In this document: positions 9,093 to 63,566 of the stretch, one piece after another | Layout: each line of letters begins with the position of its first letter | How positions within the stretch are numbered: the first letter of the stretch is position 1 | NCBI RefSeq assembly: GCF_947623445.1 | Contig: NC_135248.1 | Coordinates: 14,455,820-14,519,819, forward strand | Length of the DNA: 64,000 bases | Source: Clavelina lepadiformis | Lineage: Eukaryota; Chordata; Ascidiacea; Aplousobranchia; Clavelinidae | Direction of reading: 5' to 3' | Program-made: the position numbers and the translations under genes | The notes under the pieces: generated by a model | What the model saw: the letters and a program-made list of their open reading frames with translations, nothing else | The model's database searches: none | Told to the model about the DNA's origin: nothing

Positions 9093-9636
9093 CGATTCAA
9101 CCCACGGACGATTCAACCCCGGACGATTCAACCCACGGACGATTCAACCCAGGACGATTCAACCCCGGACGATTCAACCCACGGATGATTCAACCCGCGG
9201 ACGATTCAACCCGCGGACCATTTAACCCGCGGACGATTCAACCCACGGACGATTCAACCCGCGGACGATTCAACCCGCGGACCATTCAACCCGCGGACGA
9301 TTCAACCGACGGACGATTCAACCCAGGACGATTCAACCCACGGACTATTCAACCCGCGGACGATTCAACCCACGGACGATTCAACCCCGGACGATTCAAC
9401 CTAGGATGATTCAACCCACGGACCTTTCAACCCACGGACCTTTCAACCCACGGACGATTCAACCCAGGACTTCTCAACCCCGGACGATTCAACCCACGGA
9501 CCTTTCAACCCACGGACGATTCAACCCAGGACTTTTCAACCCCGGACGATTCAACCCACGGACCTTTCAACCCACGGACGATTCAACCCAGGACGATTCA
9601 ACCCAGGACGATTCAACCCGCGGACGATTCAACCCA
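9093..9636 (+). repeat. Minisatellite array 1 (15-16 bp unit)
   Basis: Roughly 35 head-to-tail copies of GATTCAACCCACGGAC and variants (CCCGCGGAC, CCCCGGAC, CCCAGGAC, CCTTTCAACC). Lack of stops in the units produces long spurious reading frames. The orientation is opposite to array 2. Confidence 0.95.
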
Positions 9637-10143
9637 CCAGGCGCGCTGAAAGGCCTTCCCTCTCTTGGTGGCTTTGGTTCTAAGTAGGCCTCTAATTTGG
9701 GGCACTGGAATTGTTTGCGGTACAAGAAAAGAGAAAAACGGAAGAATAATATTACAAAATTACAAGTTTAATAGATTTTGACCTAAAAGACACAATTGAC
9801 CGTATCTTGACCTAACGAAACAATTGACTTTATATTGGCCTAATAACTTCTGTACTACACGTCGCACAAGACTGAAATTTGTTTTGTGATAGCATTCTGA
9901 GCAGGTTAAAAAAAATTGACCATATAGACTTTTTTTGCGTGCAATCTTCATTCCAATCAACAAACAGTTGTTTCTAAGGTTTGACCTTTAATCGACGTGT
10001 AGGCTTTATTTTTCGCTAAGCAGGCCTACTAGTTACAACACGGTACATAAACTTGTTTTTATTTCAACACAAGATGTGTATTGGTATAGTGGTAAAAGCG
10101 GCATCCGTGCCTGATAACGAACTGCGTAGACGTTTTTATAAAC
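9637..10143. other. Spacer between the inverted minisatellite arrays
   Basis: About 500 unique bases, not tandem. At 10083-10125 the sequence TATAGTGGTAAAAGCGGC resembles a tRNA A-box/D-arm and is followed at 10144 by the B-box-like first unit of array 2. No intact tRNA cloverleaf is evident. Confidence 0.4.
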
Positions 10144-11585
10144 AGGTTGAATCGTCCGTGGGTTGAATCGTCCGGGGTTGAATCGTCCGTGGGTTGAATC
10201 GTCCGGGGTTGAATCGTCCTGGGTTGAATCGTCCGTGGGTTGAATCGTCCGTGGGTTGAATCGTCCGGGGGTTGAATAGTCCGGGGTTGAAAGGTCCGTG
10301 GGTTGAATGGTCCGTGGGTTGAATCGTCCGGAGTTGAATCGTCCGAGGTTGAATCGTCCGTGGGTTGAATCGTCCGCGGGTTGAATAGTCCGGGGTTGAA
10401 TCGTCCTGGGTTGAATCGTCCGTGGGTTGAAAGGTCCGTGGGTTGAATCGTCCGGGGTTGAATCGTCCTGGGTTGAATCGTCCGTGGGTTGAATCGTCCG
10501 TGGGTTGAATCGTCCGTGGGTTGAATCGTCCGCGGGTTGAGTCGTCCGTGGGTTGAATCGTCCGCGGGTTGAATGGTCCGCGGGTTGAATCGTCCGCGGG
10601 TTGAATCGTCCGTGGGTTGAATCGTCCGGGGTTGAATCGTCCTGGGTTGAATCGTCCGTGGGTTGAATCGTCCGTGGGTTGAATCGTCCGGGGGTTGAAT
10701 AGTCCGGGGTTGAAAGGTCCGTGGGTTGAAAGGTCCGTGGGTGGAAAGGTCCGTGGGTTGAATCGTCCGGAGTTGAATCGTCCGAGGTTGAATCGTCCGT
10801 GGGTTGAATCGTCCGCGGGTTGAATAGTCCGGGGTTGAATCATCCTGGGTTGAATCGTCCGTGGGTTGAAAGGTCCGTGGGTTGAATCGTCCGGGGTTGA
10901 ATCGTCCGTGGGTTGAATCGTCCGCGGGTTGAGTCGTCCGTGGGTTGAATCGTCCGTGGGTTGAATCATCCGCGGGTTGAGTCGTCCGTGGGTTGAATGG
11001 TCCGCGGGTTGAATGGTCCGCGGGTTGAATGGTCCGCGGGTTGAATCGTCCGTGGGTTGAATCGTCCGGGGTTGAATCGTCCTGGGTTGAATCGTCCGTG
11101 GGCTGAATCGTCCGTGGGTTGAATCGTCCGGGGGTTGAATAGTCCGGGGTTGAAAGGTCCGTGGGTTGAAAGGTCCGTGGGTGGAAAGGTCCGTGGGTTG
11201 AATCGTCCGGAGTTGAATCGTCCGAGGTTGAATCGTCCGTGGGTTGAATCGTCCGCGGGTTGAATAGTCCGGGGTTGAATCGTCCTGGGTTGAATCGTCC
11301 GTGGGTTGAAAGGTCCGTGGGTTGAATCGTCCGGGGTTGAATCGTCCTGGGTTGAATCGTCCGTGGGTTGAATCGTCCGTGGGTTGAATCGTCCGTGGGT
11401 TGAATCGTCCGCGGGTTGAGTCGTCCGTGGGTTGAATCGTCCGCGGGTTGAATGGTCCGCGGGTTGAATGGTCCGCGGGTTGAATCGTCCGTGGGTTGAA
11501 TCGTCCGGGGTTGAATCGTCCTGGGTTGAATCGTCCGTGGGTTGAATTGTCCGGGGTTGAATCGTCCGTGGGTTGAATCGTCCGA
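10144..11585 (-). repeat. Minisatellite array 2 with ~440-bp higher-order period
   Basis: Roughly 90 copies of GGTTGAATCGTCCGTG and variants, inverted relative to array 1. A distinctive pair of variant units (CCGGAGTTGAATCGTCCGAG) recurs at about 10321, 10760 and 11200, showing a higher-order repeat of about 440 bp made of some 28 units. The long apparent proteins rich in NPRTIQPTDDST are artefacts of the repeat. Confidence 0.95.
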
Positions 11586-17122: not shown

Positions 17123-20100
17123 ATGTGCGCTGAGAAAACCAGTAGAGTTAGATTCTATTTGTTTCTGGTCGGTGTTGTTCTGACCTTGAGTGGAGCGTAC
17201 GGTGTTGTCCCTTTGGTTTCGAGCTTAAACGTAGAGGAAGCAATTGGTAAGTTGATAGCAAAGCAATTTACTAATGTGATACTGTACATGACATACTCAA
17301 ATATGGTTTCATGTTTTAACAATGGATCACATCACCGAGCACAGTGATGTTTGCTACTGTAAAACTTCTGTCCACTTTGTTTAATCTGCTTGTTGTCTTG
17401 TCTTGATTAGTCGACTGTAAACTCGACTCGTCTTGGTCTGTCAGTTTCTCACATGAAAGGTTGAGAACCGTTGCCTTAGGGGTTCATGGACTCCAGGTTA
17501 ATAACCCCTGAGCTAGAGGTTCTCAAATAGGAAAAGGTTGGGAACTACTGTCCTTATAACAATAATAATAAATAATAATAATAATAAAAATATTTACATG
17601 GCGCCCTTAACTGATAAGAAGAATCGCTCTAAAACGTTAAACAATCACATAAGTTATAAAACAACAAAACTGAAAACGTTTTTTTAAGCCATGTGCTATA
17701 GCCTAAATAAGCTCTACATTCAAGAAGTAGCCTATATACAATTACTTTTTTGTCTTTTGCAAGATGCTCACAGTACATGTATCACGACACTAAGTTATAC
17801 CAGAAAATAGTTTGTGATTGACAGCTTTGTAACAACCTTGATCTTCTTTCAACAGGATCTCTTACCCTTGCGATCGGGTACGCTTTAGCCATACCCAGCA
17901 CATTCCTCGTCCCAGCTGTAGCAGCCGCATTTGGCATCAGAACCGTTGTAGTCATAGCAGCAACCTGCTATTTTTTGTTTGTACTGGGAAACGTTTACAC
18001 AGGTGATGTTTACAGTATTCATAGAACCCATCAATCAAACGCTAAATATCTCAACCTAACTTGAAACAGATTTGTGTGGATGACTTGTTTTCCTTAGCTT
18101 ACTACACGTTGATTCCGGCCGCAGTGTTCTTTGGAGTCAGCGACGGTTGGTATTGGAGTTCAGGTTCAATTGTTGCCAACAACTTTGCAATGGAAATATC
18201 GAAAAATGAACCAGGCACATACGAAAAACGTCGCCGTCTGTTCACCGGAATTTTCTTTGCTGCTTCTCACACTGGAACGGTATCAGTTGAAAACTGGCTA
18301 TTTTTTGCGCCTGCTAGCTACAGTATAAACTTTTATATTCTCCAGAAGATGTTTTGTTCATATGCAAACTGTTAAACTAACTCTCTAGATCTAGGCTCTG
18401 CGTCGTTGTGAAGTTTGTAATATCTGCTGTTATTATTCAAGGTTTTTGGCAGCGCTGTCAGTGTCGTATTCTTGTTTGTGGACAGACAGCTGTCTGGCAG
18501 GAGCAACTTTACAACGAACCGAGATTTCTCCTTCTGCGGAGCGAACGATTGTCAAGACCCGAACATAACACTTGCCAACATCGAACAGTACACCCCTGCC
18601 TTTGTCGCCACACGCTACAGCTTAATCGCATTTCTGGCCGGTCTCATAATAATTGCGGTTATCTTATACCGAGTTAATTTACCCGTTGAAGCTGGCCGAA
18701 GTGAAGTTGATCGAACAAATAGAGAAACAATTAACACGTCATCTGACATCACGACGACACCATCAAATGATGACGAAGCAGCAACAGCCAATCAGGTCAG
18801 GATGAAGTTTGTAATTCTTTATCCACTGCGTTTGCAACCCTTCAACCTGCATGGACTCTGGTCAACGGGCGCAAAAGTTACAAAACTAAAAATGCGTCCA
18901 TCGGACAATGCGCCTCAGACAAACTTGGTAACTGAGGCTTGAAAAGTATAAATTGAATCAACGCTGTCGAAAGACTCTTCTAAGTTTGTAAATAAATGAT
19001 TTGCGTCATATTACGATCAGGTAAATATCACTAACCCTTTAAACATTAAAGAGACGAAACTGTGAATACAGTACTTTGAATCTATGCTGAAAGAAATTCC
19101 TCCACAGCGCCGTCCTATTCTGGGAGGGGCCAAAGCTCCCTCTGCTTAGTCACGTGCTTGATAGCGATACCGCGCCATGAAGTTGCTGATGTAAAACCTC
19201 ATCGAAGGCAACCTTACAACCACAAAGTTTCGCTGTTATTGAGACTTTTCGAGAACGTAAAACCTTTCCAAGTTACGTCTAACTGGATGTCATTCAACAC
19301 CAGACGATGCTCAACTGATGATTGAATTTTTTGCGAATGACATTCAGGTCCCTAACCTAAAATATCAGACGACACCGAAAGTTTACATTTTTTGGAAACT
19401 TTGTTGTTGTTTCTGGAAACAGTTTTTCATGGGGCCAACCTTTTGCAGGAGAAGCCAAGCCCCGCCTCTTTACGAAAACGACCACGACCACATCTTTTTT
19501 GTGGGGCCTTGTACCGCACCATAAAACTTCTGTTGCATCAATTTATCAAAGCCTACATTCTTTCACGATGCATCGTTGTTATTGTAACTTTTCAAGAACT
19601 CGACACCATTTCAAGTGATCGCCAAGTCTTTGAAGTCAACCTTAAAGCTGCTGATCACGTCCAAGCATCTTTTGATTATGTGGCTTGCAATCTACGGCGG
19701 AATGACGCTCAGCTTCTTCAACGGAGAAATCACCAGAGCTTTTGTATCCTGCGTCTTGGGAGTTGACAAGGTGTGCGTATCACTGAAGCTTATTCTATGC
19801 TGGATGCGCCTAATTTACTAACTTATTCTTGTTTTGGCATCTACAACAGGTAGGCGTGGCGGTAATTCTGCTTGCTTCCGGTGAGGCCATGACTGCTTAC
19901 GTTGGCGGAAAAGTTAACGGCAAGTATGGTCGCAATTATCCGTTTGCTTTCGCATTCGTGCTCGATGTTTCAAGTTATGTGGTGTGCTTGAACTGGCAAA
20001 TTACCGAAAATACGACCTGGGTGATTTACATTCTCTCGTTCATGTTTGGAATGTCGGATGGTTTGTGGCAAAGTCAGACCAACGGTGAGTGGCTCAACCG

Positions 20101-20892
20101 CCCTATAACATGGAGATATGTCTGTCCTGGAAGTCACAGATGTGCCAATAGATTTATAAGGCAAAGTAATACAGCATGCGTTATAATATTTCTCTGAGGT
20201 TCAGTTCAGTTGTATACATGAACGTAAAACGTTTTCATCAGGACAAGTCTCCGTCACACGATGCTATAGTTCTAAACATACTCTCAAAACGGGTCGTGTT
20301 TTGACAAGAACGTGATATTGATAACGGGTATACAAGACTATTATCTGCCGACCTTTCCTATCTTATGCAAAACAGAATTTCATTCTCAGTTCGTCCATCT
20401 CACCTGTTCACGTACATTTAGAGCTCGTTTTGAGAAATCTTCTTAATGCTTTAGTGTTTTAACTATTATGAGAATGGTTTTGACACAAAGGCTTGCTTGG
20501 GCCTCAACGATTGTCTTGGGTCAGTATCATAATGCAAATTGTTTTTGTAGAAATGTATGGAAGTTTCTTTCGAGACGATAACAAGCAAGCTTTAGTAGCC
20601 TGGAATATCATGTACGAGGTTGGACTTGCTACTCAGTTCGCCATCAGCAAAGCTCTGTGCGTTTGGCAGAAAATATACCTGCAAATTGCCCTGATGGCTG
20701 TGGCAGGAATTTTGTACGGTAAGAACATTCTTCCTAGCCTTGGTCAAGCGACTATTTTGCTCTTAAATCCTGATTGTTTTTGCAGGTGTCGCATATTATA
20801 TATTTGTTTGGAGACTTCGAGAAGAAAAAATCTTTGAAAATCGTACCGGACCCAGCTCCAATCATATTCTCACAATCAGCGAAAGATTATGA
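17123..20892 (+). CDS. UNC93A-like transporter-family membrane protein (copy C, intact)
   Basis: An intact eight-exon gene for a 496-residue multi-pass protein of the UNC-93 family (human UNC93A is about 457). Exons: 17123-17246, 17856-18002, 18098-18279, 18442-18795, 19597-19770, 19850-20084, 20551-20718, 20786-20892. All introns are GT-AG and phases join without stops. Exon 1 begins MCAEKTSRVRFYLFLVG, and YTLIPAAVFFGVSDG in exon 3 matches the YTLIPTSILLGLG region of UNC93A. A loop with N-glycosylation-type sites (NFTTN, NITLA) is in exon 4. Exon 6 ends SDGLWQSQTN, as in the family. Function is not settled for UNC93A; plasma-membrane or vesicular roles have been proposed. The right part, from 18961, is duplicated at 1-1937, and an inverted pseudogene lies at 4641-12249. 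Confidence 0.9.
17455..17596. repeat. hAT-like terminal remnants and (ATA)n microsatellite
   Basis: GGTTGAGAACCGTTGCC and GAGGTTCTCAAATAGG followed by GGTTGGGAACTACTG resemble degenerate hAT ends. A run of ATA repeats follows at about 17562-17590. It lies in UNC93 copy C intron 1. Confidence 0.4.
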
Positions 20893-21652
20893 AAAGTTGG
20901 TCGCTTGTAGGTTCACTGCTTCCACTGCGCCTAGTGACGTCAGCAACTTCGAAGCAAGGAATCGATGGATATTTTATGCTTGGCAAAAGTATATGGGAGT
21001 TGGAACAATGGCCTATGACAGTCTTTTTGCTGCCTGGCTTTCCAGACATCTGTGTTCATATAAATTTCCTACTGTTGTTAAAATCCCATTGGTCTGACTA
21101 TAAGAAAAATTGTACAAATATTTTACTCATTCAACTGCAACATAATTCGCCTGCGGTGTAAGTTATTTATGACGTAACAAGCGTAAAACGTTAGAATCAT
21201 TAAGTCGTGGGGAATTCCCAGGTCAGATTCTTCTGAATAATCGTTCATCCAATGCAAAAGGTTAACTCCCGGTCTGATTCTTACTTCTTAGCTAATCTGA
21301 AAAAACAAAAGAAATCATGGTATCAAATATTGAAGCTAGATCACGATTAACCACATTATCATCAGTGAATGTATAGGGGTGTGAAACTACTGATTTTATC
21401 ACAATGGGCCACGACGTACAAATGTGATGACGATGAAGGTCAGACAACAGTTATAAGTATTTAGAAGCAATGACGGCATACTTGATGATTATTCGCGGGA
21501 GGCGGAAAACGTATTTAGGTACACATACGCCCGGACGAGGGCTTTATGTTGAACGCCTCCCTTATAGGCTATGTACCGGCTATAGCTAATGGGACATTAT
21601 GTGCAATGATGTGAAAGTTAAGATGTGATCAAACACGCTGAGACGTTAAATT
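20893..21652. other. Convergent 3' flanks of UNC93 and PHB2
   Basis: About 760 bases. The genes converge here, so it should hold both 3' UTRs. Identical in layout to 1938-2697. Nothing else seen. Confidence 0.45.
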
Positions 21653-47087: not shown

Positions 47088-49094
47088 TTATATCAAACCC
47101 CTGCGCTTTTTATAATCAGCCAGGTTAAGTGATCGACAAGGGGCGTCCGAAACATTACTCGATGAATTTACTTTGGGTGCGACAAGAGTTCGGTCAGCTG
47201 AAGGCATCTGCAAATCTAGTTTTATATCAAAATCGTGCGCATCAAAAAGATCTCCGGTCGCATTACTTGGTTTTGCAGCAGTAGTCAGTTTCTTGCTTAG
47301 GTCAGGTGTAAGTTTACTTCCTGACGAACTGGTGCCGTAACGTTTTTCCATTTCTTGCAGAAGTCTTTGCGTTTGCTCTCCATCTTCTGTGTTAGACACG
47401 AGAACTGGTTTGCATCTTCTTCTTGTGAATGGGTCGGCCACGGTGTTCCGCAAAGCTTTCCACTCTTCCTTGCAAGCTTTCTCCTTTTGCAAGTTGTCCG
47501 ATTTGATGCGTTCATTTATGTAAGTTATCCCGGCTATGTTCTCTTGCCGCTGCTTATCTAGGTGAGTGGCGCGCTCCTCCAATTCATCTAACACTTCACC
47601 TACACGAGTCACTTCCTCTGTATCGCCTCGAGCTTCGGCCATTTCTTTCTGCTTCATGAGGTTAGTCTTCCTCATTGCATAATTAAACGGAGTCTTTCGG
47701 AACCGCCCCTTTTCTTTTATGATGTGATCAATGTCAGTATCGTTGATATTGTACGATTGCGCTTTGTTGATTGCCGCTTGCTTCTTGTCGATGTCATCAA
47801 AAGTTGGAAGAGGTTCATCCGCTTCAGCCATGGCTTGCTTCCATTTGAAGAACTCGGAATCCGTAAAGTCAGAGTTGGACACAAATTCAAGCCTAAAGAC
47901 GCGCTCTTGCTGACCATGTTTCAACCTTAAGCCTTGATTGGTTCGAGTTTTTCCAAGTTGGTAAATTTTGGCAGTTTCAACAACATCGGTTACTTTAGCC
48001 ACTCGATAAACTGGCCTGCCTTCATGGTTGCCAATTCCAATGCGGACGTAGCATCCCAAAACGGTTTGTTTAAAAAAAGGAAGATGAATCCATTTTTCCA
48101 ATTTGGATCTTGACAATCGAATAGCTGATAGTTTTTCCTTTCTATCTAAAGGTTGCATTTTAACATTTTCTGCTTCTTCATCTTTATCTGATGTGTCAGC
48201 AATTTCTCCATCAGAGTCGGAATCAGAGGAACTAGACACCATCCCGGCAGATCGACTTTTCGATATCGGCATTTCATCATCATCATTATCCTCATCGTCA
48301 GAGTAAACGTCGCTGACTTGCAATTTCTTCTCCGCTGCTTTGTTCTTTTTTCGTTCTCTCTCCGCTTTCAAGTCTTCCAAGGTTTTGTTTTCCTTTTTCT
48401 TTTCCATATTTCTTCTTCTGTCGGAACGATCCGGCAGGAAGGATGGAGAACTCATGACTGGTGTTTTTGACTTCTTCTTCTTTTTGTGTCTGTCACCTTT
48501 CCTTTGCTGCTTTGCGAGTAGAAGCTTCTTCTCAATTTCGAATCGTTTTTGCAAAGCTTCACGCCGTTCTAATCTGTTATAAATTTCCTGCTCACGTTCT
48601 TTTTCTGTCATGTTCTCCAATCGGCGACGATCCGTCTCATCTCCAACGAGCTCCGAATCATACCCATCATCAAATCCTTTTCTCAGTGCTTCTTCATCGA
48701 ATTCATAATCCGAGGCTGAGCCATCGTCAGCTTTAGACTCTCCACTTGATGACAATTCACCATCTTCGTGAGACGAGTCATCACTAAATGAGTTTTCATC
48801 TGAATCCAGATTGTCTGGGCTGGAATTTTTCGCTGATTGTTTAGTGTGTTTGCTCCGGCCTCCTTTTTTTAAAGCTTTCTTTCTCCTTGACTCTCCACCC
48901 ATGCTCCACTCCACATCATCATCAGATGTGTCTGAGTCCGAAGAGTTAGTTGTTGTCGTCTGTATTTTGGGCTTCAATGAAGTGACGCTGTTTTTTTGAC
49001 GCTTTGCTGCAGACACGTGATCTACTTGAACAAGGTCATCACTGTCACTTTCATCTGAATCAGAAACGACACGGTTCTTCCTTCTTTTGCTCAT
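47088..49094 (-). CDS. RTF1: RNA polymerase-associated protein RTF1 (Paf1 complex), intronless
   Basis: A single exon of 669 codons; the product is 668 residues if it starts at [16 protein letters not shown] (49094), where homology begins. The open frame continues 27 codons upstream without similarity. RTF1 works with the Paf1 complex on elongating RNA polymerase II and stimulates H2B ubiquitination. Visible parts: acidic Ser/Asp N-terminus; histone-modification domain at about 133-190 ([13 protein letters not shown] then [12 protein letters not shown]); Lys/Glu-rich linker; Plus3 domain at about 320-428 ([37 protein letters not shown]); and the C-terminal motif [10 protein letters not shown] with the end [14 protein letters not shown], nearly identical to human [14 protein letters not shown]. 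The vertebrate gene has many introns, so this copy is intron-free by loss or by retroposition. A shorter paralogue lies at 51933. Confidence 0.93.
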
Positions 49095-51932
49095 TTTGTT
49101 GGCAAATAAACTCAATACGTCTTCGATACGTCTATATATCCAAGTGCTAAAGTAGTATATATATACTTGTAACAAAAGCTTTTTACCTAGAGTTCAAATA
49201 AGTTACAATAAGCTTTTACAAACACGTTCTAATTTTCTTTTGTAACAATTCCTAAATCAAGCGATAAATGTACATCAGGCGCTATTTATTCAAACTTGCA
49301 ATGAGTATTGAAAAAGTGTTACACAGCAGAGTGTTGTGAATTTTGAAACACAGTGAACTTTAAGCACAAACTTCTTGAAGAATTTGCAAGAGCTAGACTT
49401 TATTTATCATCGGACATGTCCGTTATGTTAATCAGAGTTTACTTCAGTGCTTAACTGTAAAGTACGGCAGTTTTAGCCGGAATATCAGGTGTTTAGAAGC
49501 AAAACTTCGGTGTTCAGTTGTACCAGGATGCAACTTGTGACTCAAGCATACCCCGCATTTGCGGTAAGAATGGTAGCACTCCTTTTATAACAGAAAACAA
49601 AAAAAATGTAAGAACGGCTTTTCTCCCTGCGTGCAATACTCTGTCTGCCACAAAACTTTGGGTGTACTCTTGCCACACTCTGCACTGTGCCTCAGTAGAC
49701 CTGTTGGAAAGTTCTAAATTCGGACAATAAGCCACCATATTAAAGAAATCAAGGAATCACAAGCAAATTTAATATGTGTGACAATCAACTGTAAAGTCCA
49801 GCAGTTTTCCAAAAAAAAAATACGTGATGAGTAAAATATTTGAAGTGTACATTGATAAATCTCAGGCGTGCATACAGGTGCCACACTTTCCACTATGGAC
49901 GATCAGAAAATGCACAAAGGCTAGTTCCATAACCAGGGCTCGTGCGATGAGTAATCATGGCCGGGTTTAAGTCGGTGAAAAGAATTTTCGGGTTTACCGG
50001 TATACAAGTGCACAACCACATAAGTAAACATTTCGCTACAAATACAATCTATGCTTTCTTGCAATCTATCCTAAGTAGCATTTAAAGTCTTTTTGTCGAT
50101 CCTGTCACCACTAAAGGTGACCTGTATTAAGCGCCGCCAATCTAGGCTAGGCCTAGCCTGGAACATACATTACCAATTTTTTTTTTGGCGGGACGAATGA
50201 GTAAAAATCGGAAAATAATGAACAAAAAATCTCTTCCTTAGGCTTGGACGTAGCTAAAAAGCGGAGTTGGTAAATTTTTTGTTATAAAGACATGCAATAT
50301 GTATTGTAATCGTTGTCTGTTATTGTTTTGGTTACAAACAGTTACTTTCATATAAATTGAATTTTAATGTTTTAAATTAAAAGGTAAATGAATAAAATTA
50401 TTACAGTACAAACTATTGAAGCGGCTTTTATTGTTTGAAATTTTAGTTCAGCTTTCAAATGTAACAATGAGTCAGTTTACATTCGAAACGTTCACAATTA
50501 GAATGTTTGCATCTACTCTGTCTCAGGTATTTTTTGAAGAGGCAGAAATGACAACAAGAGAAAATGGCAGCGCTTAAAAATATCGTTGTAAAACATAATG
50601 TGTTAAAAATATTAGAGTTGCCAAAGTTTCTATTCAAATATTTACAACATGTTATTGTGGGTTTAATCATTTTGCAAAGAATATGTCGCAGAGCAATCAA
50701 AAGGAATTTTCCAAAACAATTTTTTAATTTTTGAGCCCATACAAAGGGTTAAATCTCTATGAAACATCGCTCCCGTCTGAAAGTAAACAATGTTTTTCGT
50801 GGACTTCGTGCAGTATGATTTCAAAATAGCGCTATCACATCAACACTTTCCGTTTTAGATTTATTGTAAAAAATCCACTATGACAACCAAATAACAACTA
50901 AATTAATTTGTGAATGTGACTGAGACGTAACAATTACATTTATGAAATTACCGAATTTACCAGAATCGCTGTTGAAAATTCATCTAAATAACCTTCATCA
51001 CCTAACCTGTGCAATGATAGCACTGCTAATTGTTAAAAAAAATACTCCTTTTAATATTCTTTTGTTAGACAAAACTTGCATACACTGTAGCAACGAATTT
51101 TTGTATTCATTTTTTTATTTCAATCATCGATTCTTGTAAAAACAACGCACACAAATATCAGCTCAATAAACACAACAAAAAATTTCATTTGAAACACAAT
51201 GGCTGTCAGTTTGACAATACACTGTGGCGATCGTGATAATAATTGCAATAACTTATATAATTGGCATTTTGCATAAGTTTTTGTATTTCTCCAGTTAGAT
51301 AAAATTGAATATTTAGACAGCTGTGTTACACTTGGTAAATTCTGTTATTCAAACAAATTGTATTTCTAACTGACATATTGGACGCAGATATAAGTATTTC
51401 AAGTAGCATTGTTTTCACGGCGTAAAGTTTGAGTGTACTTGATGAAACGTTTAGATGACATAGAATGTATGCGATACGTGGTTTTATGGTAGCAATGTAA
51501 TAATGACATGTCATTTGCTGATTGGCAGAGATAATGATATAAAAGCTTACGCTTGGTTAAAATCCGGGCTGGCGAGTCTCTGCAAGGGCTTGTCTCTTCA
51601 GGACTTGCTAGTACTTCTCTCGGTTTTTAGTTTTGGATCTGTTTTACGCTTTGGCTTATTCAGTATTGAATTCAAGTGATAGTTCTATTCAAATGTGGAA
51701 TGGTGATTAATTGGTTTCGATGTGACAACTTATTCGGACAATATAACAATTAGACTTTATGAAGTTGGTGTTGATTTGAAGAAACATTATAGAGACAGTA
51801 AACGCAACGGAGTCAAAGACAATTATCTCGGAGTCTAACAGTAAGACTATAAGACTTTGCTTTAGGCCAACCTTAAAACATCTCCACACCATCATTCCCC
51901 ATAACACAACGACTTCAACGACAACTTTGTGT
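49095..51932. other. Intergenic between the two RTF1 genes
   Basis: About 2.8 kb, AT-rich. Opposed open frames at 49514-49738 have no recognisable similarity. No tandem repeat or RNA gene was identified. Confidence 0.4.
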
Positions 51933-53249
51933 TTACGTCAAACCCCTGCGCTTTTTATATTCAGCCAGAGTAAGGGAACGACGTGGTGGGACCGATTCAA
52001 TACTCAACGGATTTACTTTAGGTGCTTTAGGTTTTGCAGCGGAAATTGGCATCTTTTCTCGGTCGGCCTCGGAGTTTCGAAGAGTTCTCCACTCTTCCTT
52101 GTAAGCTTCCATCTTCTGCAGGTTGTCCGATTTAATGCATTCATTTAAGTAAGCGACCCCGAGTAAATGTTCTTGTCTCTTATTATACAGGTAAGTCGCG
52201 CGCTCTTCCAAATTGTCTAAGAGTTTAGACAGGCGACTGACTCCATTAGTATCACCCCGAAACCGGGCCATTTCTTTCTGTCTAAGGAGGTCGATCTTCC
52301 TCTTTGCATAATTAATCGGAGTCTTTCGGGATCGACTCTTTTCTTTTACGATGCGATCAATATCTGTGTCGGTGATTTTGTATGATTGTGCTTTGTTGAT
52401 CGCTGCTTGCTTCTTTGTGATGTCATCGAAGCTCGGAAGACGCTCCCCCGCTTTTTCCATCGCTTGCTTCCACTTCAAGAACTCGGAATCCGTAAAATCG
52501 GAGTTGGATATGAATTTAAGATTGATGACGTGCGTGTGTTGACCGTGCTTCATTTGGAAACCCAGTTTTGGGTCAACGTTTCCAACCTGGAAAGTTGTGG
52601 CATTTTCAACAACATCAACTATTTCTGCCAATCCATAAACCGGTCTGCCTTCTTCTTCGCCTTTCGAAACGCGGACGTAGCATCCCAAAACGGTTTGTTT
52701 GAAAAATGGAAGATGGATCCAGTTTTCCAACCTGAATCTTGACAATCGAATAGTTGATAGCTCGTCCATGCTAAGTAAAGGTTGTTTTTTAACATTGTTT
52801 GCTCGACCATCTTTGTCTGATGTGTGATGCTGATGTCTCATGCTTGTCTTTGTCTGTTTCACGACAGATCGACTCCTCGACATTGAAGTTTCATCATCAT
52901 CCGAGTAGACATCACTGGCTTGCAATTTCCTCTTTGCCACTTTGTTCTTCTTTCGTTGTCTTTCAACTTTTAGATTGTCCAGGATTTTGTTTCTTTCTTT
53001 ATTCTCAATGATTCGTCGTTTATTAGAAGGGTCTGGCTGGGAGGATGAAGAAGAAGAACAAATGATGGATGTATTTGGCATCTTCTTCTTCATCTGTTGG
53101 TGTTTTTCTTCTTTCCTTTGTTGCTTTCGAAGTCGAAGCTTCTTCTCGATTTCGAACCGTTTTTGCAAAGTTTCTCGTCGTTCTAATCTGTTGTAAAATT
53201 CCTGCTCACGTTCTTTTTCCGTCATGTTCTGCATTCGGCGACCACCCAT
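51933..53249 (-). CDS. RTF1-like paralogue, shortened and intronless
   Basis: A single open frame related to RTF1 throughout, giving 438 residues from the first in-frame ATG (53249). Similarity extends upstream to about 53460 (ESNETDVDNFAQERHCPAAKRP aligned with the RTF1 N-terminus), but an in-frame stop precedes it with no ATG. So the ancestral start is lost or an upstream exon supplies one. Kept: histone-modification region ([18 protein letters not shown]), Plus3 ([38 protein letters not shown]) and the ending SLTLAEYKKRRGLT. Lost: about 75 acidic residues after TTNS and the C-terminal block with [10 protein letters not shown]. Plus3 has diverged (for example VYGLAEIVDVVENATTFQ). The open frame despite divergence suggests selection, probably in a specialised role. 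Confidence 0.8.
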   Translation of the reverse strand: MGGRRMQNMTEKEREQEFYNRLERRETLQKRFEIEKKLRLRKQQRKEEKHQQMKKKMPNTSIICSSSSSSQPDPSNKRRIIENKERNKILDNLKVERQRKKNKVAKRKLQASDVYSDDDETSMSRSRSVVKQTKTSMRHQHHTSDKDGRANNVKKQPLLSMDELSTIRLSRFRLENWIHLPFFKQTVLGCYVRVSKGEEEGRPVYGLAEIVDVVENATTFQVGNVDPKLGFQMKHGQHTHVINLKFISNSDFTDSEFLKWKQAMEKAGERLPSFDDITKKQAAINKAQSYKITDTDIDRIVKEKSRSRKTPINYAKRKIDLLRQKEMARFRGDTNGVSRLSKLLDNLEERATYLYNKRQEHLLGVAYLNECIKSDNLQKMEAYKEEWRTLRNSEADREKMPISAAKPKAPKVNPLSIESVPPRRSLTLAEYKKRRGLT

Positions 53250-54306
53250 CGCATCTCCGATCAGATCCGTCAGATCGGTATCGTAACCGTCATAAAATTC
53301 TTTTCTGAGTGCTTCTTCATCGCGGGAGTTAGTTGTCGATGTCTGTAATTTGGGTTTCGATGAAGTGATGTCGCTTCTTGGACGCTTTGCTGCAGGACAG
53401 TGACGTTCTTGCGCAAAATTGTCCACGTCAGTTTCATTCGACTCAGAAAAGTATTGCAGTATTAATTACTGCAATAAGTTCGAAGAATCTTTGCTGCGTG
53501 AAAACTCTGTGAAATTAACCTTACAGACAGACAGAAAGGTTTTTGGCAAGTTAGCATATCATAACTGGCAAAAGATCCATTAATTTGCTCATGTATAGAC
53601 TTGCATTGATTGATTCCTGCTAATTATGCCATAGCGCCAGTTATTATTAGCAAACCTTTTAGGCCTATCTTCCAGTCACTCATCGAATAAAAAATAAAAA
53701 TAAAACGACAAAATAATGAAAGGTTTACAGTTTAAAAGCTAAGTAATGTCAGACAAATATTTTGCCAAAAGCGCAAACTAATCTTGCTGCCTACACCAAT
53801 ACGGTTCCTGATTTACATGGAAGCTGCTGTCCTGGCTTCAAATATCAATCGCTTAGTTTTGGGCGAGACAAATGGGCTACAACCAGCAAATGACAGACGA
53901 AAAGGTGTTTGTTTGCGGGTTTGAAACTTAAAATTCAACAACAATTTGAAACAATGAAATGAGCAAAATGAAACTAAATAAAAAGTTTAGGAAAAGATTA
54001 AGACCAAATTAATAAAGAACACCAATGGGTAAAAATCTAATTCGTGCGTGAAACGAGGCTCATTACTTTAACCACAACACCAACTTTCAACTCAATATCG
54101 TTTCCTTTGGCAAATCTATTACTCGTTGCTCACCTTGAATAACTTTCCTTGTCTGGTAAGTTGCTAAGCTACCGTGTAACTATATGTGTGTGCGCTCTGT
54201 GTGAGCGGCAGAATAATTTATAGTGTCAGACGTTTACTATTGCAACATAAACAAATGTTATTCACCTGCGTTTAACAGAAGATAAGACGGCGGTGTCCGC
54301 AAGGTG
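53250..54306. other. 5' side of the RTF1-like gene
   Basis: 53250-53460 retains RTF1-like coding similarity without an ATG. The remainder is AT-rich and unassigned. It may hold an unrecognised 5' exon. Confidence 0.4.
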
Positions 54307-56280: not shown

Positions 56281-59200
56281 TTATTCCGAGAGAACGGATT
56301 TTCTTTTCTCCATTAAAAGAACAATCCTCTTGTAGTTGTCTTCGATTCGCTGAAGTTCTATCTTTTTGTAGTGGTTGGAGATCTCCGTTGGTTTCCATCT
56401 CATGGACTGGTAGCGGTCTTCTAATTGTTTGCAAAACACCTCATGGATGTTACGTAGGTTTGACGGCTTAACATAGAGATCAGAAATTGCCTGCCACAAC
56501 AGTAGGTTTTATGTTCAACTTTGGACAACAGTACTTTGACCAAGCACAAATAAAATCTGTTTTAATAGCTTTGTGCCAATGAAATGAAACAGCAACATTT
56601 TTAGTGTTGTTTAAGCATAACATTAACGCTAAGTTTGAAATTAACTCACCTTATGCATAAACTCAAGATAATTTATGATGAGTTCGTTTTGGTACGTTGT
56701 AAATTCTGTTTCTTTGGTCATCTGCAAGATATAATAGCATTTATTGAAAATTGTCAATTACATGTTTAAATTTTCATTTCTTTAAAATTATTTCCGATTT
56801 TTAAATCATACCCATATTTGGAATTTAAAAAAAAAACAGCTAGTAATAGCCTATATCGAATTTCAGCAATTGAAAAAGCAGCCATTTTCATATCCACAAA
56901 ATATGAAACATATATTTCAACACATGGAAATCTTACTGTATTTAAAAAAATGATCGCAAAGAAATCTACTTACCAAGAAGTTATCATAATCTGCTAAAAT
57001 GACGTCAAAGGATTTATGGCAAACCGTTTCAAATATTTCTGTGGTATTTTTTATGTCATCATTTTCAGGAAAATGTTTAGAAAAGTCTGCTCGAAACTTT
57101 TCGAGCTGGGCTGATATCATCGGTTGGCGCTTATTTGAAACTGTATCTTTCATGAAAGCTTCATCATCAAGCTGTGGTTGCAATAAATCAGTTTAAATTT
57201 TAAATAATGAAACACAAATGGTATATCAATGCCGTAAAATATAAATTAATGTGTTTGATTTGGTAATTTTCAGAAAACATTTGTTTATCTGCCAAACAAC
57301 CAATTAACACGCACCTGAAATAACTTTCTTCTCAATTCGTTTAAGTGTTTAAATGCCAGGCTGTCTGAAAGCTGTCAACACACGTCATTGATTAATCACT
57401 TAACATCTTAACCGGTTATGTTGTAACAAATTCTAATAAAAGAAGAAAACAAAACTGTGCATATACTGTACAATAAAACGGGATTCAGTGATAACGACTT
57501 ATGCTTCATGTAGTAGTCACCTGGCTTGTATTTTCTGCAAATAAAGCTTCTTCACTGGCTGTCAGTTTCTTTTCCTGATTTTGGGAAAAAGAAAACGATT
57601 TTTTCGTAACAACATTTATGGCATAATACTTGGGTAATTGTACTTACTATCCACATGTCAATAGCATAATTGTTTTTAGTATATCAACTTTTTTTTGGAA
57701 AGATTTATTATAGTAAGATTCTCCAACCTCTTCAATGAGTGACTTGAAAAGTTTTTCAGACGTTTGCAATTTTTCAAACAAGAGCTTTTGAAATTCAACA
57801 TAATAATCATCCATTTTGATATTTTCCCAAATGAAATCTATCGCATCTTTACGACTTTTCACATCAGGAATGTCCTGATTTTCAACATGATTGTTTGCAA
57901 GTTTAAGAATGTTTGGGACAACAGTTTGTTCCAGGGAAAGGAATAAACATCTTATGACAAAACTTATTCATTTTTCAATTATTTGCATTGATTATGATAC
58001 ATTATCTAAACACTCATTAAAACATATTTATTTAGAAACGTACGTTATGTAAATCTCGAACAAACTTGTCAATCGCTTTGAAAAGATACGTTTCGCGTTC
58101 ATCTTGCAGTCTCAGCTGTAAACAAAACATTTGAACTTGCATGGTTAGGAAAAATAACACTGAAAAATTAGAGCTAAAATTTGAAATGTCATGAAATTCA
58201 AAAGATTCATAAATTTTTTTACCTCATATTTAAGTTGTTTTTCTTGATAATAGATAAAATGTTCATCAATTTCCTCAACCAGTTGATGTTTGAATTTCTC
58301 AAAAATGTGGTAATAAATTGTTGCCACGTATTTTCTTTTAGAATCAAACTGCTTGCTCAGTTTAACTTTCCACTTTGCGTGAATTTCTTGGACATCTTCT
58401 TTTTTCAACGGTTTTTTTACAACCTGCGTCATATAAATGTATGTTAACCATAACACGTTACAAAAATTAACAATACAGTGTAATAACGAATAAAATTAAC
58501 GAATACAATACAATTAACTTTTACTTTAATCTATGTTTAAATTGACCAACTATGTCAAGAAGCTGGTCTATTTCATATTTTTCATTTTTAAATTTCTGCT
58601 TCATAAGACGATTTGATTGAGCATCTAAAATCAAATTTTGTGTTTTTTGCTTTTAGTAAACCTTTGACGTAAACCTATATTCTTGACATGCATTTTTGCA
58701 AGACACTGATTGCATTCGTAACCCTAGCTACAGCTGATGTCATTTTACCTGCGTCATTTGTTCTCGATATTCTGTCACCAATGACATCATCAATCTCTTG
58801 GCAGTAGCCTGTGCATGTAATTTTGAATAAAACATCGAGATATTGAAGATTTTGATAAAATTTATGCTGTTGCGATTTATAAAGTAGGTTTAAAAATCTT
58901 GTTGGCCAACTCACTTCCATTGTTGTCAATGGGATGGATACTGCTCTGCTTTCAATATGCTCATGACACCGCTGCACGCAATTCAACATATCTTCGCCTT
59001 TAATTTCGGTACCTCTCAATTTTTTCGGTTTAAGATTATTTGGGTGAAGTATCTCAGAAAAAAATTCATTCAAGTGGAATTTAAAATCTTCTTCTAAATC
59101 TGCAGAAATTTTAATTTTTTGAAAGCACCCTTATAAAAATCTATAAATAATATTATTAGCACTAGCCGAGCCGGACTTCATTCTGGTTTTAACGATTGAA

Positions 59201-62200
59201 ATAAGTTATTAGATATTTTCGTTGCGCGCTAAGACCTAAAATTTTTTTTTTGTGTAAAAACCTAACACTTTAGTCGACTAAATGAAATTCCTCCAACCAT
59301 CAGCATCACCTTTATAGAAAAGCTCGTATCCTTCAGATTTCTCCCCAGTCACCAGTTCTCCAGGTCTTGGCAGAAGAAAACATCCCATTTCATCGAAGGA
59401 AATTTTAATTTCACGTTTGTCGATGATGCTTTGAGTGCTGACAGTGACGTCTTCATCCAAGGTATCGTCCAGGTATTTCGACCCGCCGTCGAATCCGCAA
59501 GGATAAAAATCTTCATCTACCCAATTTCGTTGCAAGAAACAAAATCCCTGGTTGGTTCAAATTAACACAAAAACAATTCTAGTGTATATCCTGTGTATTA
59601 GTTCTGTGTCAGAACATAGATTAAGCAACAATATAATCAATTTAACTTAACAGTTTAACCAAAGCGTGGTAAAACTTGGTTAAAAGGCCTAATCAAAAAA
59701 AGTCCAAATTTGTTTCAAAGTGATGCAATGGATGATGATCACTGAATTGTCTGTAGTCACCTGAAATGGACGTTCATTGAACTCAGCAACATTTTTCTTG
59801 GTCAGGTTGTTGAGGACTGATGAATATTTTGTGAAAATCTGCAAACAAATAGAACAAATAGCCGGAGCTACCATACCTTTTATAGGTTAGAATAATATTT
59901 GATAGCACAGCTAAAATAATTGTAAAAGAGGCGTGAATAGCACGTGTAGTGTAAGTGCCGCAAATATTTTGTGAATGAAATCCCCAAATTTAAAGGTTTC
60001 AAAATTCCAGCAGTGTTCATCTGAAATTCGCCAAATAAAGTCCCGGCTTAAAAACTACTTAAAACGTTATAGTTACTGGAGCTAATTCGTCGAAAAGCAT
60101 ATTACACATGGATTACACATGCCTCCAAAAATATAGAGACTGGACCGGAATCTTAAAACCTAAACGGAAGTGACCATTCTGCGAGCCCCACATAGATTCA
60201 TTTCAACCAAGTTACCAATAAATAATGAAACTAGTGTTGCATAATTTCATTTTAGATTCTTCTACAGCTAACATCTTGTGGTCAATGCAAACAAAGGTAT
60301 TCAGTATTCCAATATGAAAAATATTTCGTTTAGAATCTAGTTAATTTTTAATTTTACAGGATTTCATGTAACATTACAAAGACTTCCGAGAAATTTAAAT
60401 CGTCTTACGTTTAAATTTTTGAGACGATCATCGCCCATGTATCCAGGGTTATTGTAAATTAGCAAAGAACTTAGCAAAGTGCTGAATGCAAAGATATCGG
60501 GTGAAGCGGCATTTCCATTTTCGTCAAAAGCTCCCTGTGTGTCCATGAGCAAAATGGCGACCTGCCGTATGTAGAAACATCATCATAGCTTAGTGAAGGT
60601 CAACTAGGAGTTTATGAGCGGATAATCACGCTAACACACATGTTACTGAGACCTGTTTCACGTAAAACGGACGTAGTTTAGAACACAAACCGTAGTAAAA
60701 TTATTAATATACAGTAAATGAGATTGAATATCTTTTCACATACGGTTGTTCCTGACTCATCACATTTCGAGGAAAAAGATACTTATCTTTAGGAGGTTGA
60801 TCTGACTCAGAGTTGACAAATTTTTATAGTTTGGTGGGTTAATTTGTGGCTCATTTATAATTGTGAAGAATCCTCGTTTACAAAAACAAAAATTTTCCAA
60901 ACAACTTATTCGCGGTCATAACATAAGCATTTCGGGAAATTGTTTCGCAAAAAAACTAAAATGCGGCCAATAGATTTTGGCATAGCATTTCTGGTTTTAA
61001 TATGCCAAACCAAAGATTTCAAGTTTGCCAAAGAGCACGTTCAAGATGTAAATACACAGGTAACTTGTGCTACGAACGTATAAACCAACCTTACCTTTTC
61101 CTGAAAATGGTTTAAACAACGCCATTGGGGTTGTGAACAGACTAGGTTTGTTTAATAAGATAATACTGTAATTATAGCATTGTTACACCACTGTGCAAAG
61201 CTATATCAGGTGGAGAGCACTTCTCTTACATATAATTGTAATTAAATACGTTTTGATATAGGGCGCGCAGTAAGTTTCATTTACCTTTGACTGGTCTTCT
61301 TTAAAGAGCAGGAAAGGTTGACTCCACACACTGATTCCGTTCACTTCTTCTTCACGATCTTCTGTTAACTTGAAATATTGTGGAACTTTCTCTTCAGAAG
61401 AAAACTTGCCTTTAACCTAAAACAAAATAACCTTAAAGGTTAGTCATGTAGCAATATTATGATATGAATGTTCCATTAACTATAATCATTAAATTAGTAT
61501 TAATATTATTAATTTATATTAATGTTTAATATAGTTTAATTAATATATACTAATGATATAATGTTAATAACACTTTAAATGATCAGTGAAAACTACATCG
61601 GTTGCAAAGATGAATTCAAAGCACAATGGCAGGTTACACCATCTTAAGCACCTCCTGTGCAAAACATCAGAATCTACATCTACGTGTAGCCTGAAATTTT
61701 AACCTGTGGCTACATCTGCATATAGATCTAAACCTTCATCCCGTATTGTAGTTTGTTTAACACAGTGTGGAACATTTAGCGGATAAACATGACTTGAATA
61801 ATAAACTAATTTTAAATTTATTAAATATTAATTAATTATTTAATTAATTAATTAATAAAAAATAATAAATTAATTAATAAAAAAACCTCTGAGCTTAAAT
61901 AATGAATCAGAAGATTGAGAAGAAAATATTTTCCACTTCTCATGGGTCCGGTTACGGAAACAACCATCACAGGATTTTCTTTGACATCCGGATGATGAAA
62001 TATTTTATCCAACGCTTCTTTGTTTAAATCGTATCCTCCTTTCTCCTTGGGTAGTAGTATTTGAAGAGCTACCTCGTCATCAAAGAATCCTTTGAAAGAA
62101 ATTCGTAGAACAATTCAATGAAGAGTAAAATATAAAATATAAGTCATTTTATGAACTCATAACGTAATCCATGAAGATATTATTCAACTTTCAATAACAA

Positions 62201-62382
62201 TAACATTATTACAACAATATTGCATTTACAATACCTGGTTGCCATTCCAGTACTTGTTGAGGGGAACACCCTGCTACTTTTTCTTCAATTCCCTTCTCTT
62301 GTTCAGATTCATCAGGTGCCAATTTCTTTTTCACTGTTCTCTCTATTTCAAGTATTGCTTCTTTCATATCACTGTCAGCCAT
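56281..62382 (-). CDS. Atlastin/GBP-like large GTPase family protein with altered G motifs
   Basis: Sixteen exons give 748 residues. Exons (minus): 62235-62382, 61887-62089, 61285-61416, 60409-60561, 59761-59838, 59310-59547, 58915-59099, 58749-58808, 58223-58423, 58044-58115, 57689-57874, 57521-57574, 57315-57371, 56974-57171, 56650-56721, 56281-56490. The N-terminal part aligns with the GB1/RHD3 G domain of atlastin: VSVTGPMRSGKYFLL (G1, 92-107), LLMDTQGAFD (G3), FCFLQRNW (G4), FDGGSKYLDD and MGCFLLPRPG. The rest is a long charged helical region. No transmembrane hairpin is seen, so it is probably soluble, as in GBPs. G1 has Tyr for the Mg-binding Ser/Thr, the switch I ETTGI is EEVNGI, and the base-binding RD is RN. 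Loss of GTPase activity is likely but inferred. The exon 57689-57874 borders are the least certain. Confidence 0.82.
58525..58624 (-). other. Exon-like segment inside the GTPase gene intron
   Basis: 100 nt between TTTTAG and GTAAAAG, open in one frame (AQSNRLMKQKFKNEKYEIDQ). It does not fit the phase of its neighbours (both phase 0): inclusion would meet a stop after seven codons. It may be a regulatory cassette or an exon relic, or may arise by chance. Confidence 0.3.
61490..61890. repeat. AT-rich low-complexity tract
   Basis: Runs of TTAATTAA and TAATAT around 61495-61560 and 61800-61885, in an intron of the GTPase gene. Confidence 0.7.
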
Positions 62383-62962
62383 TGTTGCAGGGAACCAAAA
62401 TACTCAAAACTCAGCTGGAAATACTCAACATTTGTTACAAATTCTAGTTTTGGAATATTTCATACAGCTCAATACAATTTAATCTTTTTTTTAATGATAC
62501 TCTATATTTTGACTGTTTGGTTGATTTATTAACGCATGTTAAAAGAATGGTTTCTAAGAAAACAGGAAAACCTGAACGTTTTTAGGAAACGTTTTATAAA
62601 GTGCTATATTCTTCAAACAAATCCATTCATTTTTTTGCAGAAAACACGAAGCAATTCCTAAACTCTACGATATCCCAACTTAAGTCAAACACATTCCGAC
62701 TAAAATGACTTCTAATTGTTGAGCGATGGTTAACTTCTTTTCCATGTAGAACACGCGCTTCATTTCCTAATCATTATTTCGCATTTTCTTTAATTGCTTA
62801 TTGCCTGAAAACCTCAAGAGAAATTACGCAGAAGCACAAAAGACGTTGCCGCGTTTTAGAATAAGTGAAAAACCTACCAACATGCAGTGATTCTTTTCAA
62901 CACGTCACCATGCTTCGTTTGTTATTGTGGGGAATTTTATCTTTAACGTAGGCGTTTTAAAA
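62383..62962. other. 5' flank of the atlastin/GBP-like gene
   Basis: About 580 bases up to the LTR-like fossil. It presumably holds the promoter. No clear motif identified. Confidence 0.4.
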
Positions 62963-63566
62963 TGTAGTGGCCTCGGTGGCATTTTTAATACCATTACATC
63001 ATTCTTGGAAAAGAGCTTTCCAGTTAATCTAATACCATTACGTCATTCTTGGAAATGCGTTTTCCAGTTATTGATTGGAGTTTTGTTGTTTTGATAACAC
63101 TACAATTATCGTTGGATATTTGAAAACTTGCTCTGAATAACTTCGTGTGAAAACTCCTTTTAGTACGTTACCAGGTCGTTTCCAAGAAGCTCCAAGAAAC
63201 TGTTTCCAGTTTTAACCGAATGTAATTTGATTGCCATCGCATTGTTTTTCTCGTTCACACGCTTTGAAATGTTCATGCTTTTTTTGTCGAATATTCCGCG
63301 CCACGTTTTATAAGCTCGAACTTCTGCGCGAGAAGTCGTCAGACGGAGAGATACAGAGAGTTGTACGACCATACTCCGGTAGTCATGGTGATTGTAATTC
63401 AATAGACATCTTATTAGCAGTGGTATTACTATGTTTTTGGTTATGCGTAATATTTAGAAAGTGTACAGCACCTACAATTAAAACCTTTTCTGGTAAACTG
63501 TATCTGTTATAATATAAAAAAACCTTCGGCTGACAAGAGGTTAGAGAATTCTAACCGCACGCAACA
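62963..63566 (+). mobile_element. LTR-like fossil repeat, copy 2
   Basis: About 600 bp, from TGTAGTGGCCTCGGTGG to CCGCACGCAACA, related to 7859-8501 in the same orientation. It has an ATTAAA-type signal near 63478. No coding part is visible within the window. Probably an old LTR of unknown family. Confidence 0.45.

What the first reader, a model, noticed from the sequence alone, without database searches (positions are those of the whole stretch)
60409..62089. Atlastin/GBP-like protein with three damaged GTPase motifs: a probable pseudo-GTPase
Seen: the P-loop is GPMRSGKY (Tyr at the Mg-coordinating Ser/Thr), switch I reads EEVNGI where atlastins have ETTGI, and G4 is RN instead of RD. G3 DTQG and overall length remain, and the 16-exon frame is open. 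Inference: loss of catalysis with retained fold and a long helical C-terminus, without membrane hairpin, suggests a scaffold or regulatory member of the dynamin-like GTPases.
Basis: partly seen in the sequence, partly recalled or inferred. Interest (0 to 1): 0.75.

Follow-up and report, generated by a model that had tools for sequence, protein, structure and literature searches.

The report
Sea-squirt atlastin relative with dead GTPase site
One gene of a large family of atlastin-like GTPases in a sea squirt has lost key residues of its GTP-binding pocket while its coding frame stays intact, so it is either a young non-enzymatic partner protein or a gene on its way to dying.

Summary
The motif observation is right. 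The window fits chromosome 9 of the sea squirt Clavelina lepadiformis. On the minus strand, 62382-56281, lies a 16-exon, 735-codon gene with an open frame and GT-AG at all 15 introns. It is atlastin-type: atlastin-1 2.7e-44, best GBP 7.1e-7. The P-loop Ser is Tyr (GPMRSGKY), the switch I Thr is Val (EEVNGI) and the G4 Asp is Asn (RN). G3 DTQG and the P-loop Arg remain. The codons lie inside exons that align with paralogs, so shifted borders would not restore them.

In a survey of 44 related genes and fragments of the same genome, 42 of 43 P-loops keep Ser, 40 of 43 keep the switch I Thr, 41 of 43 keep the G4 Asp. Four nearest paralogs, an array on chromosome 2, have these residues and the same long helical tail. 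The tail is therefore no sign of lost catalysis. The Thr was lost before a partial copy on chromosome 6 split off; the Ser after.

Loss of GTPase activity is very likely but unmeasured. Whether the protein is kept as a partner or is a pseudogene in the making is open. Precedents exist (SMG8, IRGQ, septins): a new member of a known kind.

The parts
62235..62382 (-). exon 1, start codon at 62382
   Evidence: related exon 1 in L025, L027, L028
61887..62089 (-). exon 2, P-loop exon
   Evidence: 69-81% aa identity to the exon in four chromosome 2 paralogs
61926..61928 (-). P-loop Ser position, TAT = Tyr (GPMRSGKY)
   Evidence: chromosome 6 copy TCT, chromosome 2 paralogs TCA
61285..61416 (-). exon 3, switch I exon
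61333..61350 (-). switch I EEVNGI; Thr-equivalent codon GTG at 61344-61342
   Evidence: four chromosome 2 paralogs read RET-x-G
60409..60561 (-). exon 4, G3 exon
60532..60543 (-). G3 motif DTQG, intact
59761..59838 (-). exon 5
59310..59547 (-). exon 6, G4 exon (an in-frame alternative donor lies 12 nt further, used)
59524..59526 (-). G4 Asp position, AAT = Asn (LQRNW)
   Evidence: relics L051-L053 read GAT
58915..59099 (-). exon 7, start of middle domain
58749..58808 (-). exon 8
58223..58423 (-). exon 9, end of the atlastin-like three-helix bundle
58044..58115 (-). exon 10, helical tail (weakly supported by homology)
57728..57874 (-). exon 11, helical tail
57521..57574 (-). exon 12, helical tail (weakly supported by homology)
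57315..57371 (-). exon 13, helical tail (weakly supported by homology)
56974..57171 (-). exon 14, helical tail
56650..56721 (-). exon 15, helical tail
56281..56490 (-). exon 16, stop codon TAA at 56283-56281

Best explanation
A dispersed duplicate of a soluble, long-tailed atlastin-like GTPase of Clavelina lepadiformis that has lost the GTP cycle. Shown: an open 16-exon gene whose P-loop Ser, switch I Thr and G4 Asp are replaced while nearly all its relatives in the genome keep them, with the switch I Thr lost before the P-loop Ser. Inferred from known biochemistry: Tyr in place of the Mg-binding Ser, no switch I Thr and Asn in place of the guanine-binding Asp leave little or no GTP binding and no hydrolysis. 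Inferred and less certain: the protein is still made, and acts without a GTP cycle by pairing, through the G domain face, middle domain and shared tail, with the chromosome 2 paralogs that keep intact motifs, damping or holding them, much as nucleotide-free SMG8 pairs with SMG9.
For: Gene model and homologous exons. Atlastin-type G and middle domain. Motif survey: Ser 42 of 43, Thr 40 of 43, Asp 41 of 43; at 48 conserved columns this gene deviates at 6 (four in or beside nucleotide motifs), three of its four nearest chromosome 2 paralogs at 0 and the fourth at 3. Single-nucleotide derived changes, Ser to Tyr polarised by the chromosome 6 copy and Asp to Asn by exon-6 relics. Placement with the chromosome 6 copy, support 1.0, inside the chromosome 2 array clade. 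G domain under purifying selection over the whole lineage: omega 0.34 against 0.40 elsewhere, lnL 9.9 better than omega 1. Frame intact although neutral drift over the whole time since the split would leave it free of stops with P 0.006, and free of stops and frameshifts with P 0.0004. GBP1 D184N is called GTPase-deficient (PMC2714978, PMC5571548, passages). SMG8 lacks G motifs yet dimerises with SMG9 without nucleotide (PMC5473137, passages).
Against: No transcript, protein or binding data. By branch lengths some 83-90% of the lineage's change predates the chromosome 6 split and so the Tyr (1.50 per codon against 0.05 per site since the split; stem 1.07 and tip 0.22), so the purifying selection measured does not prove use after the loss. 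The post-split estimate (omega 0.33 on 107 codons) does not reject 1 (lnL gain 1.3). The control lineage E26 is more constrained (0.22 in the G domain, 0.40 in the tail). If neutrality began only in the last quarter of the post-split branch, an intact frame has P 0.145. The tail is weakly constrained (omega 0.56). The GBP1 mutant K51A, with reduced nucleotide affinity, is constitutively monomeric (PMC2998424, passage), which argues against pairing through the G domain. Pathogenic atlastin variants, the GTPase-deficient R192Q included, gave no dominant-negative phenotype in Drosophila (PMC7593789, passages). No structure model was made.
Confidence: 0.45

Rival explanations
1. Incipient pseudogene: after dispersal to chromosome 9 the copy became redundant, and the motif losses are the first neutral damage, with no stop or frameshift yet by chance.
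For: Its closest relative, the chromosome 6 copy, is already broken (three exons only, an in-frame stop), three exon-6 relics elsewhere are broken, and motif lesions occur elsewhere in the family: L036 in three motifs, L010 in G3, L032 in the P-loop. The switch I stretch differs strongly between the two copies. The post-split selection test does not reject neutrality.
Against: Open frame and 15 GT-AG introns; P 0.0004 if neutral since the split, 0.019 if for half of it, 0.145 if for a quarter. In exon 2 the one certain replacement on this branch is the Ser to Tyr change, while the chromosome 6 copy has four certain replacements, one of them a stop.
Confidence: 0.38
2. The protein still binds a nucleotide with altered affinity or base preference, and works as a slow or non-hydrolysing switch.
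For: P-loop Lys and Arg, G3 DTQG and the G4 Arg are intact. Asp to Asn in G4 is the change that in several GTPases shifts preference from guanine to xanthine (recalled, not from a call). Class II septins lack the catalytic Thr but still bind GTP (PMC10731463, section 10).
Against: A Tyr at the Mg-binding Ser would be expected to obstruct Mg and phosphate (inference); three sites are changed together.
Confidence: 0.12
3. Artefact: sequencing error, wrong splice sites, or RNA editing restores a normal GTPase.
For: A-to-I editing of AAT would give GAT (Asp) in G4; no cDNA was seen.
Against: Assembly QV 67.4 (PMC10884593, passages). The changed codons are inside exons whose flanking residues align with paralogs, and A-to-I editing of TAT cannot give Ser. 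Three independent errors are improbable.
Confidence: 0.03

Closest known systems
Chromosome 2 array paralogs of the same genome (four genes within C2:418-459 kb)
   Same: 56-62% identical G domain, 41-44% identical tail, shared exons
   Different: they keep GKS, RET-x-G and RD
Atlastin (human ATL1; Clavelina C7 atlastin)
   Same: G domain and three-helix middle domain match over residues 57-459, E 2.7e-44
   Different: atlastin has a transmembrane hairpin (hydropathy 2.08 in the C7 protein against at most 0.65 after residue 320 here) and intact GTPase motifs; the tail past the bundle has no relative of known structure by sequence
SMG8 of the SMG8-SMG9 complex
   Same: atlastin/GBP-like G domain with lost motifs and a helical stalk; pairs with another G domain without nucleotide (PMC5473137, passages)
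   Different: SMG8 is a conserved NMD factor; this is a young copy known from one genome. No sequence comparison with SMG8 was run here
IRGQ quasi-GTPases
   Same: homologue of an immunity GTPase family with an altered nucleotide site, suggested as regulator of its relatives (PMC1297648, passages)
   Different: different family (p47 IRG)
BmAtlastin-n
   Same: cytoplasmic atlastin homologue with coiled-coil middle domain (PMC4926086, abstract and start of introduction)
   Different: described with a conserved GTPase domain; antiviral in silkworm

Membership tests
Atlastin/GBP GTPase family (PF02263) | profile match to the G domain | tested here: met
   136.2 bits against a cut-off of 21.1
Atlastin proper | closer to atlastin than to GBP in G and middle domain | tested here: met
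   ATL1 154.8 bits; best GBP is GBP2 at 31.2 bits, GBP1 21.7 bits
Atlastin proper | tandem transmembrane hairpin and short tail | tested here: not met
   19-residue hydropathy at most 0.65 after residue 320; C7 atlastin 2.08
GBP | GBP-type helical domain | tested here: not met
   tail profile: 11 of 12 PDB matches are atlastin middle domains, the twelfth an ORC2 at E 0.46, none a GBP; a sequence test only
GBP | CaaX end (present in some GBPs only) | tested here: not met
   protein ends KRKSVLSE
Active dynamin-superfamily GTPase | GKS/T P-loop, switch I Thr, RD | tested here: not met
PseudoGTPase | loss of conserved GTPase motifs in an open coding frame | tested here: met
PseudoGTPase | no GTP hydrolysis or binding in vitro | not testable with these tools
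   needs recombinant protein
PseudoGTPase | changes conserved in orthologues | not testable with these tools
   no relatives of this genome are held
PseudoGTPase | still selected after the loss | tested here: inconclusive

The most novel reading that the evidence does not exclude
A recently arisen atlastin-family pseudo-GTPase, kept as a nucleotide-free partner that pairs with and restrains its own catalytically intact sister array: an SMG8-like or IRGQ-like split caught within one genome, with the switch I Thr lost before the P-loop Ser, and a second independent candidate (L036, chromosome 2) in the same family.
Probability: 0.3. Interest if true: 0.55.

Novelty: new member of a known kind. 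Interest (0 to 1): 0.33.

Why it matters
If the protein is used, it would show early steps by which a GTPase becomes a non-enzymatic partner, with intact sister genes and a partial copy in the same genome to order the losses. It also draws attention to a large family of atlastin-like genes in a sea squirt (44 genes and fragments surveyed), relevant to how GBP-type defence families arise; a review calls the function and presence of GBPs in invertebrates unclear and asks whether atlastins took over defence roles there (PMC9005921, passages). If it is a dying copy, it is ordinary gene turnover.

Tried and rejected
Wrong exon borders as the cause: rejected, the codons lie inside exons that align with paralogs. 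A GBP proper: rejected on score. The tail as evidence of a scaffold role specific to this gene: rejected, paralogs with intact motifs share it. Branch test after the chromosome 6 split: run, too little data; the chromosome 6 branch gave an omega at the upper bound, so the division of changes between the two copies is unreliable. YN00 failed for two pairs of the helical part. The extra open stretch at about 58614-58524 was left out of the model because it is out of phase and runs into a stop. Their lists, mostly cut (for example 15 of 291, 15 of 1,656, 12 of 156), showed no title on a pseudo-GTPase of the atlastin family or on this gene; that is not proof of absence. An ascidian tunic proteomics paper that mentions a guanylate-binding protein (PMC7401272, listing only) was not read.

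Mended: best GBP hit named (GBP2), the fourth paralog's 3 deviations and the control lineage's lower omega added, weak exons named, listing limits stated.

Full report
Source. Contig lengths seen for seven of the nine largest contigs of the genome that holds the window, C1 28.78, C2 26.53, C3 25.73, C4 25.07, C5 24.62, C6 20.77 and C9 15.73 Mb, agree with 28.79, 26.54, 25.74, 25.07, 24.62, 20.77 and 15.73 in Table 2 of the Clavelina lepadiformis genome note (PMC10884593, passages). The held genome has 209.06 Mb in 95 contigs, the published one 210.1 Mb in 102 scaffolds, so the copies are not identical. The species name rests on this match alone.

Gene. On the minus strand, 16 exons from ATG 62382 to TAA 56281 give 735 codons; all 15 introns are GT-AG. 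Two in-frame donors 12 nt apart could end exon 6; I chose the one whose product aligns better with atlastin. Homologous pieces of most exons were found in four chromosome 2 paralogs; exons 10, 12 and 13 only weakly. Pfam gives only GBP (PF02263) above its cut-off. Among solved structures atlastin-1 matches residues 57-459 at E 2.7e-44, 9jju (named LOC432253 protein; that this is RNF112 is recalled) matches at 2.9e-16, GBP2 at 7.1e-7 and GBP1 at 5e-4.

Motifs. P-loop GPMRSGKY, switch I EEVNGI, G3 DTQG, G4 LQRNW. In atlastin numbering the switch I Thr is Thr120, the G4 Asp is Asp218 and the P-loop arginine is Arg77 (PMC5473137, passages); the Arg is kept here.

Survey. PF02263 gave 101 exon-level matches in the genome, a lower bound by the tool's own note. 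I fetched stretches for the clusters of those matches and found four G-domain exons by profile. Grouping gave 46 rows; two partial rows were dropped, leaving 44 genes or fragments, not all shown to be intact genes. P-loop Ser: 42 of 43 rows with that exon, the exception being this gene. Switch I Thr: 40 of 43; exceptions this gene, the chromosome 6 fragment L025 and L036. G4 Asp: 41 of 43; exceptions this gene and L036 (Tyr). G3 Asp: 40 of 42; exceptions L036 and L010. Other lesions: L032 has Arg for a P-loop Gly, and L036 and L011-L013 have Glu for the G3 Gln. One search showed two more P-loop places outside the survey; both read GKS. At 48 columns conserved in at least 85% of the others, this gene deviates at 6 of 48; L026, the plus-strand gene of L027, L028 and L020 deviate at 0 of 48, the minus-strand gene of L027 at 3 of 48, L036 at 10 of 47, L046 at 9 of 48 and L034 at 7 of 48. 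So the number of deviations does not mark out this gene; their positions do: three of its six fall in G1, G2 and G4 and a fourth (G71D) just upstream of switch I. I did not test this clustering for significance.

History. A stretch on chromosome 6 (L025) matches 61113-62963 at 88.7% DNA identity, holds exons 1-3 only, and has a stop in exon 2; it also carries pieces similar to 51.9-53.5 kb and 50 kb of the window. Between it and the window gene, noncoding sites differ at 76 of 810, exon 1 at 10 of 148, exon 2 at 9 of 203, exon 3 at 13 of 132. With chromosome 2 paralogs as outgroup, Ser to Tyr (TAT against TCT in the chromosome 6 copy) is on the chromosome 9 branch; the switch I Thr is already Ile in the chromosome 6 copy, so it was most simply lost earlier. 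In one search the exon 3 row of one paralog (D27) was out of register by one codon and was not used. Three exon-6 relics on chromosome 2 (L051-L053, found, with frameshifts or stops) read RD, so Asn is derived, a G to A change; its time relative to the other two is unknown. A tree of the four exons puts the gene with L025 (support 1.0) inside the chromosome 2 array clade.

Selection. G domain: one-ratio omega 0.38; with its own ratio the window lineage has 0.34 against 0.40, no significant difference, and omega 1 is rejected (lnL -2853.4 against -2863.4). Tail: 0.56 against 0.62; omega 1 loses 2.3 lnL. The control lineage E26 has 0.22 in the G domain and 0.40 in the tail, so the window lineage is the looser of the two. 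The lineage is long compared with the time since the split, so this speaks mostly for the time before the losses. For the time after, 107 codons give omega 0.33, not distinguishable from 1. A neutral simulation gives P 0.006 for no stop over the whole post-split branch, 0.07 for half, 0.28 for a quarter; with frameshifts, 0.0004, 0.019 and 0.145, from only two frameshifting indels in the noncoding reference. This favours use for at least part of the time but does not settle the present.

Tail. At the sensitivity the long helical tail was found in the chromosome 2 array, and only its first part at two further places (C2:1854500, C3:17900050). It has no transmembrane stretch and, past the atlastin-like bundle, no relative of known structure by sequence. 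It is shared by paralogs with intact motifs, so it is a feature of the subfamily.

Mechanism. Shown: the changes and, for two of the three, their order. Well-supported inference: no normal GTP cycle; the G4 change equals GBP1 D184N, called GTPase-deficient and used as dominant negative (PMC2714978 and PMC5571548, passages). Open: what the protein does. The nearest precedent is SMG8, which lacks G motifs and pairs with SMG9 without nucleotide (PMC5473137, passages); IRGQ quasi-GTPases were suggested as regulators of IRG proteins (PMC1297648, passages); septin pseudo-GTPases arose several times (PMC10731463, abstract and section 10). Against pairing through the G domain: GBP1 K51A is monomeric (PMC2998424, passage). 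I put a retained non-cycling partner at 0.45 and an incipient pseudogene at 0.38.

Verdict. Observation right; catalytic death very likely; function and retention open; a new member of a known kind.

Noticed in passing
L036 (C2:2381300-2382800): A second degenerate paralog: switch I KPG, G3 ETEG, G4 RYW, but GKS kept; a long branch next to L011-L013 (support 0.75). Only 1.5 kb was held, so its integrity is unknown.
   Followed up: partly
L010 and L032: Single motif lesions in two other paralogs: G3 Asp to Tyr in L010, P-loop Gly to Arg in L032, whose relatives L031 and L033 keep the Gly.
   Followed up: no
window 47091-49193 and 51936-53465, minus strand: Two uninterrupted open frames with a Plus-3 domain (Rtf1-type by recall), 701 and 510 codons; a third related stretch lies in L025 on chromosome 6.
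   Followed up: partly
window 9089-9637 and 10145-11584: Two minisatellite arrays of the same 16-base unit (62-base higher unit) in opposite orientation; the long open frames there look like repeat artefacts.
   Followed up: no
L051, L052, L053 (C2:615.5, 298.0, 587.8 kb): Three broken copies of exon 6 at separate places on chromosome 2, 81-92% alike where they match; L052 runs into sequence similar to the window's minisatellite.
   Followed up: partly
L001 (C7:12756778-12757578): An atlastin with a hydrophobic hairpin in a single open frame of 564 codons, so without introns over that stretch.
   Followed up: partly
C3:2585-2608 kb (L011-L013): Three copies of one paralog about 10.4 kb apart, identical in protein over the four surveyed exon cores.
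   Followed up: no
window 396-2206 and 19356-21161: Very similar sets of open frames repeated about 19 kb apart, hydrophobic in part.
   Followed up: no
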